Source: Candidatus Vecturithrix granuli
GTDB taxonomy: Bacteria; Moduliflexota; Moduliflexia; Moduliflexales; Moduliflexaceae
Assembly: GCA_000739535.1 (NCBI GenBank)
Contig: DF820465.1
Span: 153,123-202,407 of the forward strand
DNA length: 49,285 nucleotides
Direction: 5' to 3'
Position 1 is the first letter of the stretch. Each line of letters opens with the position of its first letter. This document shows positions 3,031 to 8,899 of the stretch, piece by piece. The notes under the pieces were generated by a model. It made no database searches. It had not been told where the DNA came from and saw only the letters and a list, made by a program, of their open reading frames with translations. The translations under genes and the position numbers were made by a program.

Positions 3031-3567
3031 TTATAAATTCTGGCGGGTGCGTAAACGCGTCAGGGCCGTGACCAACAGGGGATCCTCGATGCTCACGCCT
3101 TCTTCAGAGCTCACCCATTCGACGCTGGAACCTTGTTCAAAATAACTGCCATCTACCTGAGGTGCTACTTGTTTTTTGCCGGTCACATCAACAGCAAACA
3201 AGGATACCTGCGTATCCATGGCTTTTGAGGGTTTCACAATGCCTAAAGGGATCAGTTCATCCTGCATAGCCGTAAGCCCGCTTTCTTCGAGCAATTCACG
3301 ACAGGCGGTGGCTTCGAGGCTTAAATCCGCTTCTTTGCCGCCGGTAATGCTATATAATTCGGCTTCACGGCTGTGAGCCGGACAGACCTCGCGTCGAGCC
3401 AAAAATTCCACGCCTGACATATCCATTTTGTACCGAAACGGCAGCAGGACGACAATTTGTCCCTCACAGCGGATTTCATGCACAAAGGTATAACCATCCG
3501 GCGTTTGTCGGATTTGTAAAAACCGATTTTCAAACAAAATTTCGTACTCTTGTGCAAACTGATTCAC
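3031..3567 (-). CDS. Nudix hydrolase (ADP-ribose pyrophosphatase-like)
   Basis: A 178-residue Nudix-fold hydrolase, likely cleaving a nucleoside diphosphate linked to another group. The Nudix box runs from G76 to L98 and keeps the metal-binding core R90-E91-L-L-E94-E95-S-G97. The first conserved glutamate of the box (GX5E) is replaced by L82, with D81 next to it. The overall layout, with an N-terminal beta region before the box, resembles ADP-ribose pyrophosphatases, but the substrate cannot be fixed from sequence. Its start lies directly beside the palindrome at 3580. It is about 340 bp from the SLOG/TIR cassette and transcribed the same way, which matters because ADP-ribose derivatives are TIR products. 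The intervening repeats argue against a shared transcript. Confidence 0.85.
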   Translation of the reverse strand: MNQFAQEYEILFENRFLQIRQTPDGYTFVHEIRCEGQIVVLLPFRYKMDMSGVEFLARREVCPAHSREAELYSITGGKEADLSLEATACRELLEESGLTAMQDELIPLGIVKPSKAMDTQVSLFAVDVTGKKQVAPQVDGSYFEQGSSVEWVSSEEGVSIEDPLLVTALTRLRTRQNL

Positions 3568-3905: not shown

Positions 3906-4811
3906 TTACATATTCTCTGAAAGTCTGGACAATCCTTTGAGAACCAGGGAGATCATTTCAGGAATATGCGGGGTTGCAAACAGTCGCTCGTTTTCTTCGA
4001 GATTCAAACCATTATGTAATCCTGCCACCCCTTCTTGCTGGAAAAAGGCGACCAGCGCATCGTAATCAATCGGTTCCTGACCTGTTTCAGGATGTTCTTT
4101 CACCTGGGCATTATAATAGGCCATAAACTCTTCATAGCCTGGATTTTGGGCGATTTGATATGCGGTGGTCAGGGGTTCCGGATGCGCTCCGTGCATGGCG
4201 TCGATCACCGCTTTGGCGCATCCGCCGAAGCCGCCGAGCAGAAACAGAGGTTTCTCATCGTGCAGACAAATGAAGGCTTCTTCGATCAGACCCGGATATT
4301 TGCCCTTATAGCCCGTGAGTCTGCCGCCTAATAATAACCGGGCATCGGTTTCCAAACTCATCTTTTCCCGCATCACCGTCAGGCAGCGCGCCCAGATGTA
4401 ACTATTTTCCGCTGAATTCGGATGAAGAAACTCTGTCGGATTGATTTGAAGGTCTGTAGGCGGATCTAAGGGTCTGAAATCGGCCACGCCTTTGAGTTCG
4501 GCTTTTTGCCGTATAGGCAGGTTTAAATGAATCGGCCAGGCTAAAAAGGTGATGACACGCTTATAAGGCGGCAGCCCCTGTTGATTATTGGCCTGCACCA
4601 GTTTAAATAAGGTTTCTGTAAACCCGCCGGCGCGAAGATCTCCGCCATACGCCAGCGACGAGCCGCTTGCCAGAAGATAGCGGGCAAATTCGACCATGGC
4701 ATCTTGTAAATGAATTTCGTTTAATCCTAAAGCCGGCAGATCCGGACTTTCAGAAATTGAGAGCCCGATACAATAATCATTGAAAAAAGAATGTTGGTGT
4801 GTTGTTTCCAT
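3906..4811 (-). CDS. Stand-alone SLOG (STALD-like) nucleotide-sensing protein
   Basis: A 301-residue soluble protein. Residues about 14-200 carry the Rossmann-like SLOG signature: a first strand with GLSISES, then the loop YGGDLRAGG (55-63), then LGGRLTGYKGKYPG (161-174) and EE (177-178), then LLGGFGG (191-197). In the SLOG superfamily these loops bind nucleotides or ADP-ribose-type ligands. STALD members are named for association with TIR and Sir2 proteins (ThsA of Thoeris is one). Unlike ThsA it has no fused effector, only a C-terminal helical tail of about 100 residues. It starts 4 bp after the ATPase-TIR stop codon, and its Shine-Dalgarno GGAGG overlaps that gene's last codons, so the two are translationally coupled. 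Family assignment is from motif recall and the precise subfamily is uncertain. Confidence 0.75.
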   Translation of the reverse strand: METTHQHSFFNDYCIGLSISESPDLPALGLNEIHLQDAMVEFARYLLASGSSLAYGGDLRAGGFTETLFKLVQANNQQGLPPYKRVITFLAWPIHLNLPIRQKAELKGVADFRPLDPPTDLQINPTEFLHPNSAENSYIWARCLTVMREKMSLETDARLLLGGRLTGYKGKYPGLIEEAFICLHDEKPLFLLGGFGGCAKAVIDAMHGAHPEPLTTAYQIAQNPGYEEFMAYYNAQVKEHPETGQEPIDYDALVAFFQQEGVAGLHNGLNLEENERLFATPHIPEMISLVLKGLSRLSENM

Positions 4812-4815
4812 GATC

Positions 4816-7017
4816 TTACCTCCGTAGAAACATGGGGGTTGTAAATTCCAGATCGGGTACCAGCGCTGACAGAATTTCCATTTCTTCCATGCCGATAGGG
4901 GGATCTGGATAAATAAGCATCTTGATGTTCTGTTGCTTGAGCGTTTTTTGAAGATGTAACAGCGTCAACAATTCCGGCGGGCGTGATGACCAATAGATTG
5001 TTTCAGGAAGATCGAAGAGTTGGCGAAGATCTTCGAAATACTGCCGTAAATAGACATCTTTCAAGACCTCATATAACAAGAGATCAAGGGCAGATTCAAT
5101 GGCCTGATCGTATAATTCCAGATTCTCTTGAATCTGATCCATCTTCCAACGCAGCGTCGCAACATTGCCAAGATACGGAAAACTGCGTTCTTCATTATTA
5201 CTAAGCGCATTGACGACCACCAGTGGACGTTCCATCTGTTTCGCCATCAAAATTTCGCGCCGGCACCACTCGCGCGAGGCATAAGCATCGGTTTGAATGG
5301 CTAACACGGCCGCATCCTGAATCTGCGCTTTGATTTCTTCGGCAAAGGAGTAACTCGGGGCAATATCATTGGCGTCAAAAAAGGACTTGAGTGCGGTTTT
5401 GCGGTACAGATAATCACGAAAATGTTCCGCAATATCCAATCCGTCGCGTTTGGCATGGCTCAAAAATAATTTGACCGGCGCAAAACTAACGTCTGTACCT
5501 GAAGGCACAACCGTTCGCTCTTGCGCCAACAGCAAGCGGCACAATTCATGGGTCAGGCTGCGAACCAGAGCCGCGGGCTGCCGTTCTTTGCCCAGATCGT
5601 GTACGCGAATAAAATTGACTTCCGGGACTCTGCTATATAGGTTAAAAGCATACAGACTCATGGAGACAGGAAACAGGCGATGCGGACTGTTCGGAGACTG
5701 AGTTTTTTCCCACAGGGTTCCTAAATAGGCGTCCCATCGATCGGAAGCGACCAGATGATCATCAACGAGGGCCACAACAACCGTATGGTGCGAGTCATCA
5801 AAGGGAATCGGTAACGGCGCACCGCTTTTCGCATCGCTCATATTCCGAAAAAAGAGGGGAATTCCAATTCTGCGCGAGACTGGATTCCTGACATCGCGCG
5901 TCAGCCAGGAATAGAGATAATTCGCAAACCTTTGGCCTTCTTCATAGTGCGGATGCCAAACGATATACACTGTCAATCGAGGCTGATAATGATCTGGTAT
6001 TCCTATAAATTCTTCTTTCTGAGGCTTTTTTTTCCGTTGTTCTTGTGGTAAAAATTTCTTTAGAGCGTTAAAGAGTCCATTATAAGATTTTTCTAACTCT
6101 AAAGATCGCTTTTTATATGAATCTTTTTGTGTTACTGCAATTATTTCTTCAAAAGCATAGTACGGTACATAAGGGATCTCTATTTCTTCTAAAAAACTCC
6201 TTCTATCTGTCTTATTATTTTTATCTTTTACTTCAAATAGTTCTTCAGGTAAAAAATCCAGAAATCTTTCTTTTACTTTTTGGCGAAATACATTAAGCTT
6301 TTCAGTTTCAGAAACTCGTTCAATTCTTGAAGGAACTATAACGGTCTTCAATTCTCTATTATGGCGTAATTCCGGAAGGCGATGATCTGAAAAGCTTTCT
6401 ACCATGTGAAGGGTTCCATCGATATTCTGTTCGTTTGCCGCACAAAACAGCACGACTACATCTGCTAGTTGATATGTACAAACTCCTCCCATTTCAGTTA
6501 CACCTGTCCGGCTATCTATCAGGACAACATCAAATCTTTCATTAAATTGCTCACGTAACCATTCAAAATAAACTTCTCCCTCCCAATTTTGATAAAAATC
6601 CTGCCAATCAAACCTTTTAACTTCATTTGAATATTCCAAAAATTGCTTACCTTTTCTTTGCCCCGCAGAAAGAAAGGACAGCTTTGCCTGATTATCTTTG
6701 TCTTCGTTTTTATTAGGAGTTATATCAACTATATATTCTTCAACGATATCATATACAGGAAAGAATGATGTTCCCTCTTCTGGCTGAAAATCCAATAGCT
6801 TCTCTTTGTAATCCTGTAACATATTCATGATTCCACGATATGCTAAAGCATTATCAATTTGTTTCGTAGAGAATAAAAACCGTTCAAGTCCCGGAGCCTC
6901 CAAATCCCAATCTACAATAAGTACTTTCCACCCATCATTATACATCAAATGAGCAATATTAACCAGAGCCATAGAACGGCCAACTCCGCCTTTATATGAA
7001 TAAAACGTATAAATCAT
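4816..7017 (-). CDS. KGGVGR-variant ParA/MinD-like ATPase fused to two TIR-type domains
   Basis: 733 residues. Domain 1 (1-about 325) is a MinD/ParA-type P-loop ATPase. Its deviant Walker A is KGGVGRS (9-15) where KGGVGKT is usual, followed by VLIVDWDLEAPG (32-43) and a Walker-B-like VLIDSRTG (165-172). A charged linker (KKKPQKEE) follows. Domain 2 (about 346-500) begins LTVYIVWHPHYEEGQRFA and looks TIR-like, but shows no clear catalytic glutamate. Domain 3 (514-about 630) is a canonical TIR domain: VKLFLSHAKRDG, FFDANDI, and WCRREIL carrying the likely NADase glutamate E588. A tail of about 100 residues (631-733) is unassigned. Base composition changes from about 30% GC over the ATPase half to about 50% over the TIR half near 5990-6000. 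The gene starts 6 bp after the trypsin-like gene and runs into the SLOG gene. Confidence 0.88.
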   Translation of the reverse strand: MIYTFYSYKGGVGRSMALVNIAHLMYNDGWKVLIVDWDLEAPGLERFLFSTKQIDNALAYRGIMNMLQDYKEKLLDFQPEEGTSFFPVYDIVEEYIVDITPNKNEDKDNQAKLSFLSAGQRKGKQFLEYSNEVKRFDWQDFYQNWEGEVYFEWLREQFNERFDVVLIDSRTGVTEMGGVCTYQLADVVVLFCAANEQNIDGTLHMVESFSDHRLPELRHNRELKTVIVPSRIERVSETEKLNVFRQKVKERFLDFLPEELFEVKDKNNKTDRRSFLEEIEIPYVPYYAFEEIIAVTQKDSYKKRSLELEKSYNGLFNALKKFLPQEQRKKKPQKEEFIGIPDHYQPRLTVYIVWHPHYEEGQRFANYLYSWLTRDVRNPVSRRIGIPLFFRNMSDAKSGAPLPIPFDDSHHTVVVALVDDHLVASDRWDAYLGTLWEKTQSPNSPHRLFPVSMSLYAFNLYSRVPEVNFIRVHDLGKERQPAALVRSLTHELCRLLLAQERTVVPSGTDVSFAPVKLFLSHAKRDGLDIAEHFRDYLYRKTALKSFFDANDIAPSYSFAEEIKAQIQDAAVLAIQTDAYASREWCRREILMAKQMERPLVVVNALSNNEERSFPYLGNVATLRWKMDQIQENLELYDQAIESALDLLLYEVLKDVYLRQYFEDLRQLFDLPETIYWSSRPPELLTLLHLQKTLKQQNIKMLIYPDPPIGMEEMEILSALVPDLEFTTPMFLRR

Positions 7018-7023
7018 AATTTG

Positions 7024-8442
7024 CTACTCCCCTGTAATTTTCTCTTGGATACCTGTTTTTTCTGGTCTTCCCTTTTGCATTTGATACCTTTGCTCTTTAG
7101 TCGGAACACTTCTTCTGATTCTAAAATTAGCTAAAGTTGATATCAGCCTTCGACGTAAGCAGCGATCTCCATTTACATCAAATTCATGAAGGGCCTCAGC
7201 ATTTTCTTCAAATGCCGCAAAGGGAATTTTCATGAAAGATTTATATATGTGACTTGAGAGTAATTCATCTATTTTAGAAGCTTTTTGCTTGTCGAGAGGT
7301 GAAATTACGATCAGCGCAATTTGATCAGGATGCCCCATAACCTGACTGTGAGTTAGTCCTTTTTCTAATGTAGGGTGATACATTGAAACAGTATCAATAA
7401 TTAAAATTCCCCCCTGGTTACGAAGTCTATTAGTAATTGTAGTGTTTTGTTCTTCTGAAAAGAAGTCATCAGACAAATAATCAATGTAAATTTCTTCATC
7501 TTCTTCTAATTTAAAATGTTTATTTAACCTATCTACAGCATCCTCTATAATTTCCTTTATTGATTGCCGATCTGTTCCTAAAGGGATCCATTCATCTCTG
7601 GATCTTCCATAATACGATTTAATTTCATCTTTCTTCAAACCGAGAACTTTTTTTAACTCCTTAAATTGTTTAAATTCATCACACCTGTTGTTATGAAAAA
7701 CTTTTCCCGAATCTAATTCCTCAACTTCGCTCTGATTCATAGCAATAACAGCAATTTGAATTTTAGTTCCATTTTTAGGTGTTTTGGGTTTTTCTCTAAT
7801 AAGATCGGAAGGTTTCTTTCCTATTTCTTCCCAAAATTTTTTAAGTTCGACTAGGTTCCATATAGAAATAGCCTGACCTGTTTTTCTTTGTCGCTCTCTT
7901 GTATTTACAATTCCAAGAATTTCGTTGGTTTTGGCGTCTATTACAGGTGAACCGCTGTACCCGGGCGCTAAATAATAATCTTCTTCTTCCATTTGATCAA
8001 TCTTCAAATCCCAGGCAGGATAGTGTTTTGTAGAATCTTTAGGTTTTAAATTAAAATTTACAATCAATGTACCTTCAAGAGGAAGACATTTGGAACTCTC
8101 ATGGACATATTCTTTATATCCTATAATACGTATTTTAAGTTTTCTGGTTCCTCCTTTTATTAGAGAATAAATATTTTCAATTTTTTTATATCCTGTAATT
8201 TTTAAAATAGCTAAATCTAAATCTTTTGCATTGCTATAATCGACTACTATTGCTATTTTTCCACTAATTTTCACATGATCATCTCCCCCTACACTATCTA
8301 CAACATGCCTACAAGTTACTACATACGTATCTTTTTCATGTTGGTGAATAATAAAACCGGTACCAAATGCTTTTTCTCCTTCTTTGTTACTTTCAATCAA
8401 AACAACTGGCTCCATCAGACGTTCATCGAATAGATCTTCCAT
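7024..8442 (-). CDS. Trypsin-like serine protease with long unknown C-terminal region
   Basis: A 472-residue protein without a signal peptide, so probably cytoplasmic. Residues 10-about 205 are a trypsin-fold protease with the likely triad H46 (TCRHVVDS), D76 (DLDLAIL) and S163 (GYSGSP). Residues about 225-472 form an unrecognised alpha/beta region with hydrophobic strands such as GGILIIDTVSMYHP and IALIVISP. Proteases of this kind act as activatable effectors or processors in NTP-dependent bacterial conflict systems. The gene is very AT-rich (some 60-bp stretches have only 15% GC), unlike its neighbours, which suggests recent transfer. The start has a GAGGAG ribosome site. It leads a tight operon with the ATPase-TIR and SLOG genes. 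Its substrate is unknown; the TIR protein is an obvious candidate. Confidence 0.82.
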   Translation of the reverse strand: MEDLFDERLMEPVVLIESNKEGEKAFGTGFIIHQHEKDTYVVTCRHVVDSVGGDDHVKISGKIAIVVDYSNAKDLDLAILKITGYKKIENIYSLIKGGTRKLKIRIIGYKEYVHESSKCLPLEGTLIVNFNLKPKDSTKHYPAWDLKIDQMEEEDYYLAPGYSGSPVIDAKTNEILGIVNTRERQRKTGQAISIWNLVELKKFWEEIGKKPSDLIREKPKTPKNGTKIQIAVIAMNQSEVEELDSGKVFHNNRCDEFKQFKELKKVLGLKKDEIKSYYGRSRDEWIPLGTDRQSIKEIIEDAVDRLNKHFKLEEDEEIYIDYLSDDFFSEEQNTTITNRLRNQGGILIIDTVSMYHPTLEKGLTHSQVMGHPDQIALIVISPLDKQKASKIDELLSSHIYKSFMKIPFAAFEENAEALHEFDVNGDRCLRRRLISTLANFRIRRSVPTKEQRYQMQKGRPEKTGIQEKITGE

Positions 8443-8493
8443 TTCATCTTCTCCTCTGAAAACCTATAGGAATCGAAGTTTATTGAGATTTTG

Positions 8494-8531
8494 GGTAGTT
8501 CCGGGAATTTCATACCTCATTCCCGAAACAA
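8494..8531. repeat. Palindromic repeat (TTCGGGAAT type)
   Basis: An inverted pair GGTAGTTCCGGGAATTTC / CATTCCCGAAACAAC lies between the protease and TRYPCO1-like genes. It is a short relative of the palindromes at 1913 and 9995. It could affect read-through between the two genes, but has no T-run. Confidence 0.5.
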
Positions 8532-8572
8532 CTTTTCTACAGACATTTTAGAAAAACCGTGAACATTAAGTC

Positions 8573-8899
8573 TTAGGAATTCTCGTTTTCTTTAGGTTTA
8601 AGGGTTAATTTCACATTTACATTCGCCCCTGCTTTGGCCTTTGTGACATAAAGATTTCCTTCTGCTTCAAAAGCCAGACCTAATTCTACCTCAGCCTGTT
8701 CAATCATCATTTCTTTATTTAATTCCTGCCAGACCGAAATGACTGGACGACAGACCTTGAGGAGAATCGGTTTAATCTTCTCAATGCTCTCTTGCACTTC
8801 TTTGGCATAATCGATGGAAGCTATTTGCTCAACTTCATTCGGCGAAGCTTCAACTTCCACTAAAGTTCCATCTTGTAATTTAATAAGCTTTGTTCCCAT
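8573..8899 (-). CDS. Small TRYPCO1-like protein (trypsin-co-occurring domain)
   Basis: A 108-residue soluble protein. It opens with a beta-hairpin-like KLIKLQDGTLVEVEA, continues with a predicted helical middle (about 25-70), and ends with two beta-like segments (EVELGLAFEAEGN and ANVNVKLTLKP). This matches my memory of TRYPCO1, a small domain encoded next to trypsin-like proteases in conflict systems (described by Aravind and co-workers). It lies 130 bp upstream of such a protease on the same strand. It has its own AAAGGAG ribosome site 6 nt before the ATG. It may hold the protease in check or act as its first substrate; that is inference. GC is near 40%, between the AT-rich protease and the 50% host-like genes. 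Confidence 0.72.
   Translation of the reverse strand: MGTKLIKLQDGTLVEVEASPNEVEQIASIDYAKEVQESIEKIKPILLKVCRPVISVWQELNKEMMIEQAEVELGLAFEAEGNLYVTKAKAGANVNVKLTLKPKENENS

What the first reader, a model, noticed from the sequence alone, without database searches (positions are those of the whole stretch)
3906..8899. Four-gene SLOG / ATPase-TIR-TIR / trypsin / TRYPCO1 cassette
Seen: a compact minus-strand cluster with 4- and 6-bp gaps between its last three genes. It joins a TRYPCO1-like protein, a cytoplasmic trypsin-like protease with H46/D76/S163, a KGGVGR ATPase fused to two TIR-type domains (E588 in the second), and a SLOG protein without effector. Known: TIR enzymes make ADP-ribose signals, STALD SLOG domains sense them in Thoeris, and TRYPCO proteins mark protease-based conflict systems. 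Inference: the ATPase senses invasion, the TIR domain cuts NAD or makes a signal, the SLOG protein binds it, and the protease activates or ends the response. I know of no characterised system with all four parts.
Basis: partly seen in the sequence, partly recalled or inferred. Interest (0 to 1): 0.88.

Follow-up and report, generated by a model that had tools for sequence, protein, structure and literature searches.

The report
Chimeric protease–ATPase–TIR–SLOG defence-like operon
A bacterium seems to have spliced a widespread but unstudied two-part NAD-cutting alarm unit (TIR plus SLOG, usually found beside Thoeris-type sensor genes) onto a protease/ATPase unit of another kind of conflict system, giving a four-gene operon of a make-up seen nowhere else in our survey.

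Summary
The four genes are real and their domains check out: Trypco1, Trypsin_2 (H46/D76/S163) plus a C-terminal domain (CTD), KGGVGR P-loop protein fused to TIR domains (E588), and SLOG cluster 2. The four-part cassette itself recurs nowhere in our survey. It is two modules joined. (1) TIR1-TIR2 + SLOG2 is a conserved unit: fused or side by side in 38 of 40 fetched loci from many phyla, with E588 invariant in 36 homologues. In 32 of 40, Thoeris ThsB-like TIR genes lie within 5 kb; the window has none. (2) The trypsin's CTD and a KGGVGR protein sit side by side in two cyanobacteria; in one, trypsin and CTD are separate proteins, each carrying an EAD1 adaptor. In the window, codon G+C switches sharply (GC3 0.25 to 0.51) at codon 347 of the fused gene, two codons into TIR1: a chimera. 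Best reading: a Thoeris-like NADase effector (TIR2, gated by SLOG2) now wired to a protease/P-loop conflict module in place of, or beside, ThsB input. Function is inferred, not shown. The 'ATPase' has Arg for the P-loop Lys and may be inactive. New variant of known kinds.

The parts
8573..8899 (-). Gene A: Trypco1 (trypsin-co-occurring domain 1), 108 aa
   Evidence: PF19493 1.9e-10, over cut-off; NF041216 3.3e-12; only copy in the genome
8488..8566 (.). Host-type repeat with a palindrome (8502-8525) in the 130-bp gap between A and B
   Evidence: query 334-412 matches 11 other places in the genome; palindrome located
7829..8442 (-). Gene B, N-terminal: trypsin-like protease domain (res 1-205), H46/D76/S163, no signal peptide or TM segment apparent
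   Evidence: Trypsin_2 2.2e-9; residues; hydropathy
7024..7828 (-). Gene B, C-terminal domain (CTD) that pairs with KGGVGR proteins
   Evidence: 30% identity, E=3e-14 to Pseudanabaena L063 protein beside a KGGVGR gene; E=6e-15 to EAD1-CTD protein in L086; weak FxsC_Cterm match
5995..7017 (-). Gene C, N-terminal: KGGVGR ParA/MinD-like P-loop domain (res 1-341), low G+C
   Evidence: NF047398 1.2e-43; GC 0.343, GC3 0.249
5970..6060 (.). Chimera junction: Lys/Arg-rich linker and GC3 change-point at codon 347 (coordinate 5976)
   Evidence: LLR 27.1 against at most 9.2 in 500 shuffles; linker ALKKFLPQEQRKKKPQKEEFIGIPDHYQ
5482..5994 (-). Gene C: TIR1, conserved TIR-like domain without catalytic Glu motif
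   Evidence: invariant H355 and P450 in 36 homologues; confident model; fold not independently proven
4816..5481 (-). Gene C: TIR2, catalytic-type TIR (E588 in REWCRRE) with C-terminal PEL...YPDPP motif
   Evidence: TIR_2 3.5e-12; E588 invariant in 36 homologues; SARM1 TIR Z 15.0, rmsd 2.6 over 124 aa
3906..4811 (-). Gene D: SLOG cluster 2 protein, partner of TIR1-TIR2
   Evidence: PF18163 1.4e-107; conserved GGD, R148, PGxxEE, FGG motifs

Best explanation
The operon is a chimera of two conflict modules. Module 1 is TIR1-TIR2 + SLOG2, a widespread Thoeris-like effector: SLOG2 binds a TIR-made nucleotide (cADPR-type) and unleashes the NADase of TIR2, starving or killing the infected cell. In most loci the signal would come from neighbouring ThsB-like TIR proteins. 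Module 2 is Trypco1 / trypsin-CTD / KGGVGR P-loop protein, a signalling-protease module of the effector-associated-domain (EAD) kind. In this genome TIR1-TIR2 was joined in frame to the C-terminus of the KGGVGR protein, the place where relatives carry other effector or adaptor parts (TIR, EAD10-STAND, FGE). So activation of TIR2 is now controlled by module 2, in place of or on top of a ThsB signal. The P-loop part acts as a regulatory or assembly platform that docks the protease through its CTD; the protease then frees or activates the TIR part, perhaps by cutting the Lys/Arg-rich linker or by removing Trypco1. Shown: domains, active-site residues, conserved pairings, absence of ThsB in the window, composition break at the fusion point. 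Inferred: defence role, NADase activity, nucleotide gating, docking and cleavage.
For: TIR-TIR and SLOG2 on one ORF or side by side in 38 of 40 loci, and again in most of the further cyanobacterial and planctomycete hits. ThsB-like TIR genes within 5 kb in 32 of 40, with Pfam ThsB_TIR confirmed for several and PADLOC ThsB models matching them. E588 invariant; TIR2 fold SARM1-like. CTD next to KGGVGR in Pseudanabaena and L086, where EAD1-trypsin and EAD1-CTD are separate genes, so the window's trypsin-CTD fusion replaces an adaptor link. KGGVGR proteins with other C-termini: TIR (L064, L087), EAD10-STAND (L063), FGE (L067), weak TPR match (L066). GC3 break at the domain border. Independent TIR-SLOG2-CHAT protease fusion in a planctomycete (L092). 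Precedent for a trypsin-like protease activating a defence pro-enzyme (PMC12799240) and for SLOG sensing of cADPR by ThsA (PMC11204291).
Against: No second example of the whole cassette. Trypco1 is 130 bp away behind a repeat, so co-transcription is unproven. Trypsin and the P-loop part are compositionally foreign (GC3 0.2-0.3 against about 0.5), so the fusion may be young and not yet selected. A ThsB-like TIR gene exists elsewhere in the genome. The S1 region of the protease looks HtrA-like and not clearly Lys/Arg-specific (own reading of the sequence). The flanks are mostly housekeeping genes rather than a defence island. No function was tested.
Confidence: 0.5

Rival explanations
1. One reading: TIR2 makes a second messenger, SLOG2 senses it and switches on the trypsin-like protease, which is the killing effector (as TIR signals activate a caspase-like protease in one Thoeris type).
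For: A trypsin-like protease is present and catalytic residues are intact; a natural TIR2-SLOG2-CHAT protease chain exists in L092; TIR-to-caspase signalling is a published precedent (Rousset et al. 2025, cited in PMC12799240).
Against: In 38 of 40 loci TIR-TIR/SLOG2 occurs without trypsin, so SLOG2's usual partner is TIR2; ThsB-like genes supply a separate signal source in 32 of 40. In the window the protease is linked to the P-loop part, not to SLOG2.
Confidence: 0.2
2. Juxtaposition without joint function: recombination joined an incoming Trypco1/trypsin/P-loop island to a resident TIR-TIR/SLOG2 gene; the fusion is neutral or decaying and TIR-TIR/SLOG2 still answers a ThsB elsewhere in the genome.
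For: Sharp composition break exactly at the junction; no second cassette in the survey; one ThsB-like TIR gene elsewhere in the genome; both kinds of module also lie near each other in defence islands without fusion (L067, L046).
Against: Reading frame is open through 733 codons, all catalytic and conserved residues are intact in both halves, gene spacing of 6 and 4 bp suggests translational coupling, and the join lies at a domain border where KGGVGR proteins commonly carry effectors.
Confidence: 0.22
3. Not immunity but regulation: SLOG2 is a nucleosidase/phosphoribohydrolase and the TIR-TIR chain a scaffold in housekeeping signalling.
For: SLOG domains include base-releasing enzymes (PMC9503650); SLOG2 keeps an EE pair in its PGxxEE loop.
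Against: Patchy distribution (4 of 386 cyanobacterial and 7 of 392 planctomycete genomes), plasmid carriage, 16 of 5426 E. coli genomes, ThsB neighbours.
Confidence: 0.05

Closest known systems
Thoeris (ThsA SIR2-SLOG or TM-macro effector + ThsB TIR sensors)
   Same: SLOG next to an NADase-type domain; ThsB-like TIR genes next to the TIR-TIR/SLOG2 unit in most loci
   Different: Effector domain is TIR (TIR1-TIR2), not SIR2 or TM-macro; SLOG is cluster 2, not STALD; no ThsB in the window; a P-loop/protease module is attached
NCBIfam Thoeris type III (ThcA, ThcB4)
   Same: TIR2 matches the TIR stretch of ThcB4 (37 bits); the SLOG of a Priestia homologue matches ThcA (23 bits)
   Different: Far below the curated cut-offs of 220 and 110 bits; no paper on type III held in the library
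Trypco1/trypsin and EAD conflict systems (Kaur et al. 2020, PMC7159879)
   Same: Trypco1 beside trypsin; EAD1-linked trypsin and EAD1-CTD with KGGVGR protein in a cyanobacterium
   Different: No VMAP, MoxR, vWA or EAD in the window operon; effector is TIR-TIR/SLOG2
Hachiman/AVAST/Lamassu/DRT nuclease-protease pairs (PMC12799240)
   Same: A trypsin-like protease acquired by a defence operon, possibly to activate a partner effector
   Different: No MBL nuclease; protease fused to a CTD; candidate substrate would be the TIR fusion or Trypco1
KGGVGR ATPase-TIR proteins (Sinorhizobium L064; own genome L087)
   Same: P-loop domain followed by a catalytic-type TIR
   Different: Single TIR, no SLOG2 partner, no trypsin

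Membership tests
Thoeris | ThsB-like TIR signal-generating protein in the operon | tested here: not met
   No ThsB-like TIR in the 49-kb window other than TIR2 itself; one weak ThsB_TIR gene on another contig
Thoeris | ThsA effector of SIR2-SLOG or TM-macro type | tested here: not met
   Effector part is TIR1-TIR2 and SLOG cluster2; no SIR2 or Macro match
Thoeris | TIR-derived cADPR-type signal sensed by SLOG | not testable with these tools
   Biochemistry needed
Thoeris type III (NCBIfam ThcA/ThcB4) | Match above curated cut-offs | tested here: not met
   ThcB4 37.4 bits against 220; no ThcA match for the window SLOG
TIR-TIR/SLOG2 unit (defined here) | TIR1-TIR2 of about 390 aa with invariant WCRxE glutamate, fused or adjacent to SLOG cluster2 | tested here: met
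   E588 invariant in 36 homologues, SLOG 4 bp downstream
TIR NADase | TIR fold with catalytic glutamate | tested here: met
   SARM1 TIR Z 15.0; E588; activity itself untested
Trypco1-trypsin pair | Trypco1 gene next to trypsin-like peptidase with intact triad | tested here: met
   pairing seen in 23 of 30 cyanobacterial loci
VMAP/iSTAND ternary conflict system | MoxR ATPase and vWA components linked | tested here: not met
   None among the operon or the nearest flanking genes
ParA/MinD ATPase | Walker A KGGxGK[ST] | tested here: not met
   KGGVGRS, Arg14 in place of Lys; variant family NF047398
FxsC-type protein | FxsC_Cterm match above cut-off | tested here: inconclusive
   13.7 bits against 55 in the window CTD, 12.2 in Pseudanabaena, same region

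The most novel reading that the evidence does not exclude
A Thoeris-family effector has changed its trigger: the diffusible TIR signal input (ThsB) is replaced by a protease/P-loop conflict module covalently joined to the TIR effector, so that proteolysis rather than, or together with, a cyclic nucleotide switches on NAD destruction; the parent TIR-TIR/SLOG2 unit is itself an unstudied, widespread Thoeris-like system.
Probability: 0.3. Interest if true: 0.82.

Novelty: new variant of a known kind. Interest (0 to 1): 0.62.

Why it matters
Two points. First, TIR-TIR/SLOG2 with ThsB-like partners looks like a widespread unstudied Thoeris-type system (Bacillota, Bacteroidota, Cyanobacteria, Pseudomonadota, Planctomycetota, plasmids, and 16 of 5426 E. 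coli genomes) that can be tested directly in laboratory E. coli. Second, the window catches a defence effector being re-wired to a different sensor/protease module at a visible DNA join, a concrete case of how bacterial immune systems swap inputs and outputs.

Tried and rejected
Structure of the protease CTD: modelled with two sequences, mean pLDDT 36.6, not interpretable. The PDB 'CAP repeat' match of the CTD is a chance match to a short helical repeat. TIR1 against ThsB profiles: no match; against TIR2: marginal; so TIR1 is left as TIR-like, unproven. Phage records: no SLOG2 relative. CTD in 386 cyanobacterial and 392 planctomycete genomes: one clear hit and one marginal partial hit, too rare for a neighbourhood statistic. 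Phylum of the window: only four genomes held, no second SLOG2. Literature on Thoeris type III: not held. The 2015 SLOG classification paper was not held.
Full report
OBSERVATION. The four minus-strand ORFs exist at the stated places, with gaps of 6 bp (B-C), 4 bp (C-D) and 130 bp (A-B). Pfam and NCBIfam support every domain named: Trypco1, Trypsin_2, KGGVGR P-loop, TIR_2 and SLOG cluster2. H46/D76/S163, E588 and the KGGVGR motif are at the claimed positions. The window is part of an 8.4-Mb genome whose phylum has only four held genomes. The nearest flanking genes annotated are housekeeping or of no defence type: a NUDIX-like gene, a histidine kinase, CvfB, a TPR/HEAT protein and a cobalamin adenosyltransferase.

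MODULE 1, TIR-TIR/SLOG2. I searched plasmids and 84,980 species genomes with the SLOG protein and annotated 40 loci. In 38 of 40 a TIR2 relative and SLOG2 are on one ORF or side by side; one chain of about 690 aa in Gloeothece, Priestia, Aureispira, Prochloron, Nostoc, Lysinibacillus and others (12 loci with TIR2 and SLOG2 on one ORF), overlapping or abutting genes in Pseudomonadota and several Bacteroidota. The set is not fully independent (L029/L030 and L033/L034 are near-duplicates). Further hits in 4 of 386 cyanobacterial and 7 of 392 planctomycete genomes repeat the pattern in most cases. In 32 of the 40 loci one or more separate ThsB-like TIR genes lie within 5 kb, often abutting the unit (the two hits of L036 are weak); Pfam ThsB_TIR and PADLOC ThsB models agree. 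Two of the other eight have another TIR gene (L020, L021). This is the layout of Thoeris (PMC11204291), with TIR-TIR/SLOG2 in the place of ThsA. None of the 40 loci has the trypsin or Trypco1 beside the unit, or a P-loop fusion; one (L046) has a KGGVGR gene some kilobases away. A related unit is in 16 of 5426 complete E. coli genomes. In PADLOC neither SLOG2 nor TIR-TIR gets a strong match, and NCBIfam's type III Thoeris models match only weakly.

Across 36 homologues the TIR2 glutamate E588 (REWCRRE) is invariant, as are S520, F546, D548, D551 and C585. TIR1 has its own conserved residues (H355, P450 invariant; W354, R391, W428) but no catalytic glutamate motif; the chain ends in a conserved PEL...YPDPP motif. 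An AlphaFold2 model of TIR1-TIR2 is confident (pLDDT 85.5, pTM 0.88); TIR2 matches SARM1 TIR (Z 15.0, rmsd 2.6, 124 residues), SPARTA TIR (14.5) and EcThsB (13.2). TIR1 was barely tested by that search and its profile match to TIR2 is marginal, so 'two TIR domains' is half proven.

MODULE 2, Trypco1/trypsin-CTD/KGGVGR. Trypco1 next to trypsin is a known pairing (PMC7159879) and holds in 23 of the 30 best cyanobacterial Trypco1 loci. A Pseudanabaena plasmid gene carries this CTD (30% identity, E=3e-14) directly before a KGGVGR gene that is 40% identical to the window's and is fused to EAD10 and a STAND-type ATPase. In a cyanobacterial contig (L086) the order is EAD1-trypsin, a small membrane protein, EAD1-CTD, KGGVGR. 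There the protease and the CTD are separate proteins joined, presumably, by like-with-like EAD1 contacts; in the window they are one chain. Thus the CTD appears to be the link to the KGGVGR protein. KGGVGR proteins elsewhere end in TIR (L064; and a second copy in the same genome, L087), FGE (L067) or a stretch with a weak TPR match (L066). The KGGVGR motif has Arg in place of the P-loop Lys; Kaur et al. judged MinD/ParA-like domains in such systems inactive. I therefore call it a P-loop platform, not an ATPase sensor.

THE JOIN. Gene B and the first 347 codons of gene C have GC3 of 0.23-0.25; the rest of C and D have about 0.50, the host's value. The change-point is at codon 347, two codons into TIR1 (log-likelihood gain 27.1 against at most 9.2 in 500 shuffles). 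So a foreign, A+T-rich trypsin/P-loop block was joined in frame to a host-like TIR-TIR/SLOG2 unit at a domain border. On the tree of TIR-TIR+SLOG2 the window lies with the cyanobacterial/Bacillota/Bacteroidota group (support 0.915), as a branch of its own.

MECHANISM. Because SLOG2 and TIR-TIR occur on one chain and beside ThsB-like genes, the most economical reading is ThsA-like: ThsB makes a signal, SLOG2 binds it, TIR2 destroys NAD. In the window there is no ThsB; module 2 is fused instead. I infer that the P-loop/CTD/protease part controls TIR2, perhaps by cleavage in the linker ALKKFLPQEQRKKKPQKEEFIG or by removing Trypco1. Activation of a defence pro-enzyme by a trypsin-like protease is a demonstrated principle (PMC12799240), and a planctomycete TIR2-SLOG2-CHAT chain (L092) shows that this TIR/SLOG pair has joined a protease at least once more. 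The protease's primary specificity is unknown. A neutral, recent fusion without joint function remains a serious rival.

VERDICT. Observation confirmed; interpretation partly supported; the four-part linkage is unique in the survey, its halves are each conserved. New variant of known kinds, with the parent TIR-TIR/SLOG2 unit a good candidate for an unstudied Thoeris-like system.

Noticed in passing
L024, L025, L031, L033, L034, L037, L042, L043, L045: Nmad2 genes in 9 of 40 TIR-TIR/SLOG2 loci and 5-hmdU DNA kinase helical-domain (HMUDK_hel) genes in 5, interleaved with TIR genes; uracil-DNA glycosylase-like genes in 4 loci (one annotated in L015). Looks like a DNA base-hypermodification plus TIR island.
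   Followed up: no
L092:3874-7548: Planctomycete protein of 1225 aa: TIR2, SLOG cluster2 and a CHAT (caspase-like) protease in one chain.
   Followed up: partly
L096:778-2592: AAA-type ATPase domain fused in front of SLOG cluster2, beside a ThsB-like TIR gene.
   Followed up: no
L087:4652-6765 (own genome, contig C20): Second KGG(T)GR P-loop protein of the genome, fused to a TIR domain and preceded 14 bp upstream by a TIR gene.
   Followed up: partly
L086:2146-6424: Cyanobacterial operon EAD1-trypsin, small membrane protein, EAD1-CTD, KGGVGR P-loop protein: an uncharacterised EAD system.
   Followed up: partly
L067:5965-10345 (Rhizobium beringeri plasmid): KGGVGR P-loop protein with C-terminal FGE domain next to a SLOG2/TIR pair and several TIR genes.
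   Followed up: no
window 8488-8566: Genome-wide repeat with a palindrome between Trypco1 and trypsin; 11 other places in the genome.
   Followed up: partly
window 3031-3567: NUDIX-like gene on the same strand 338 bp downstream of SLOG; weak Pfam match (2.3e-4, just over cut-off), its Nudix box looks imperfect.
   Followed up: no
L015:5494-7986: Rhizobium plasmid TIR-TIR gene broken up, with an IS3 transposase gene inside it, upstream of intact SLOG2.
   Followed up: no
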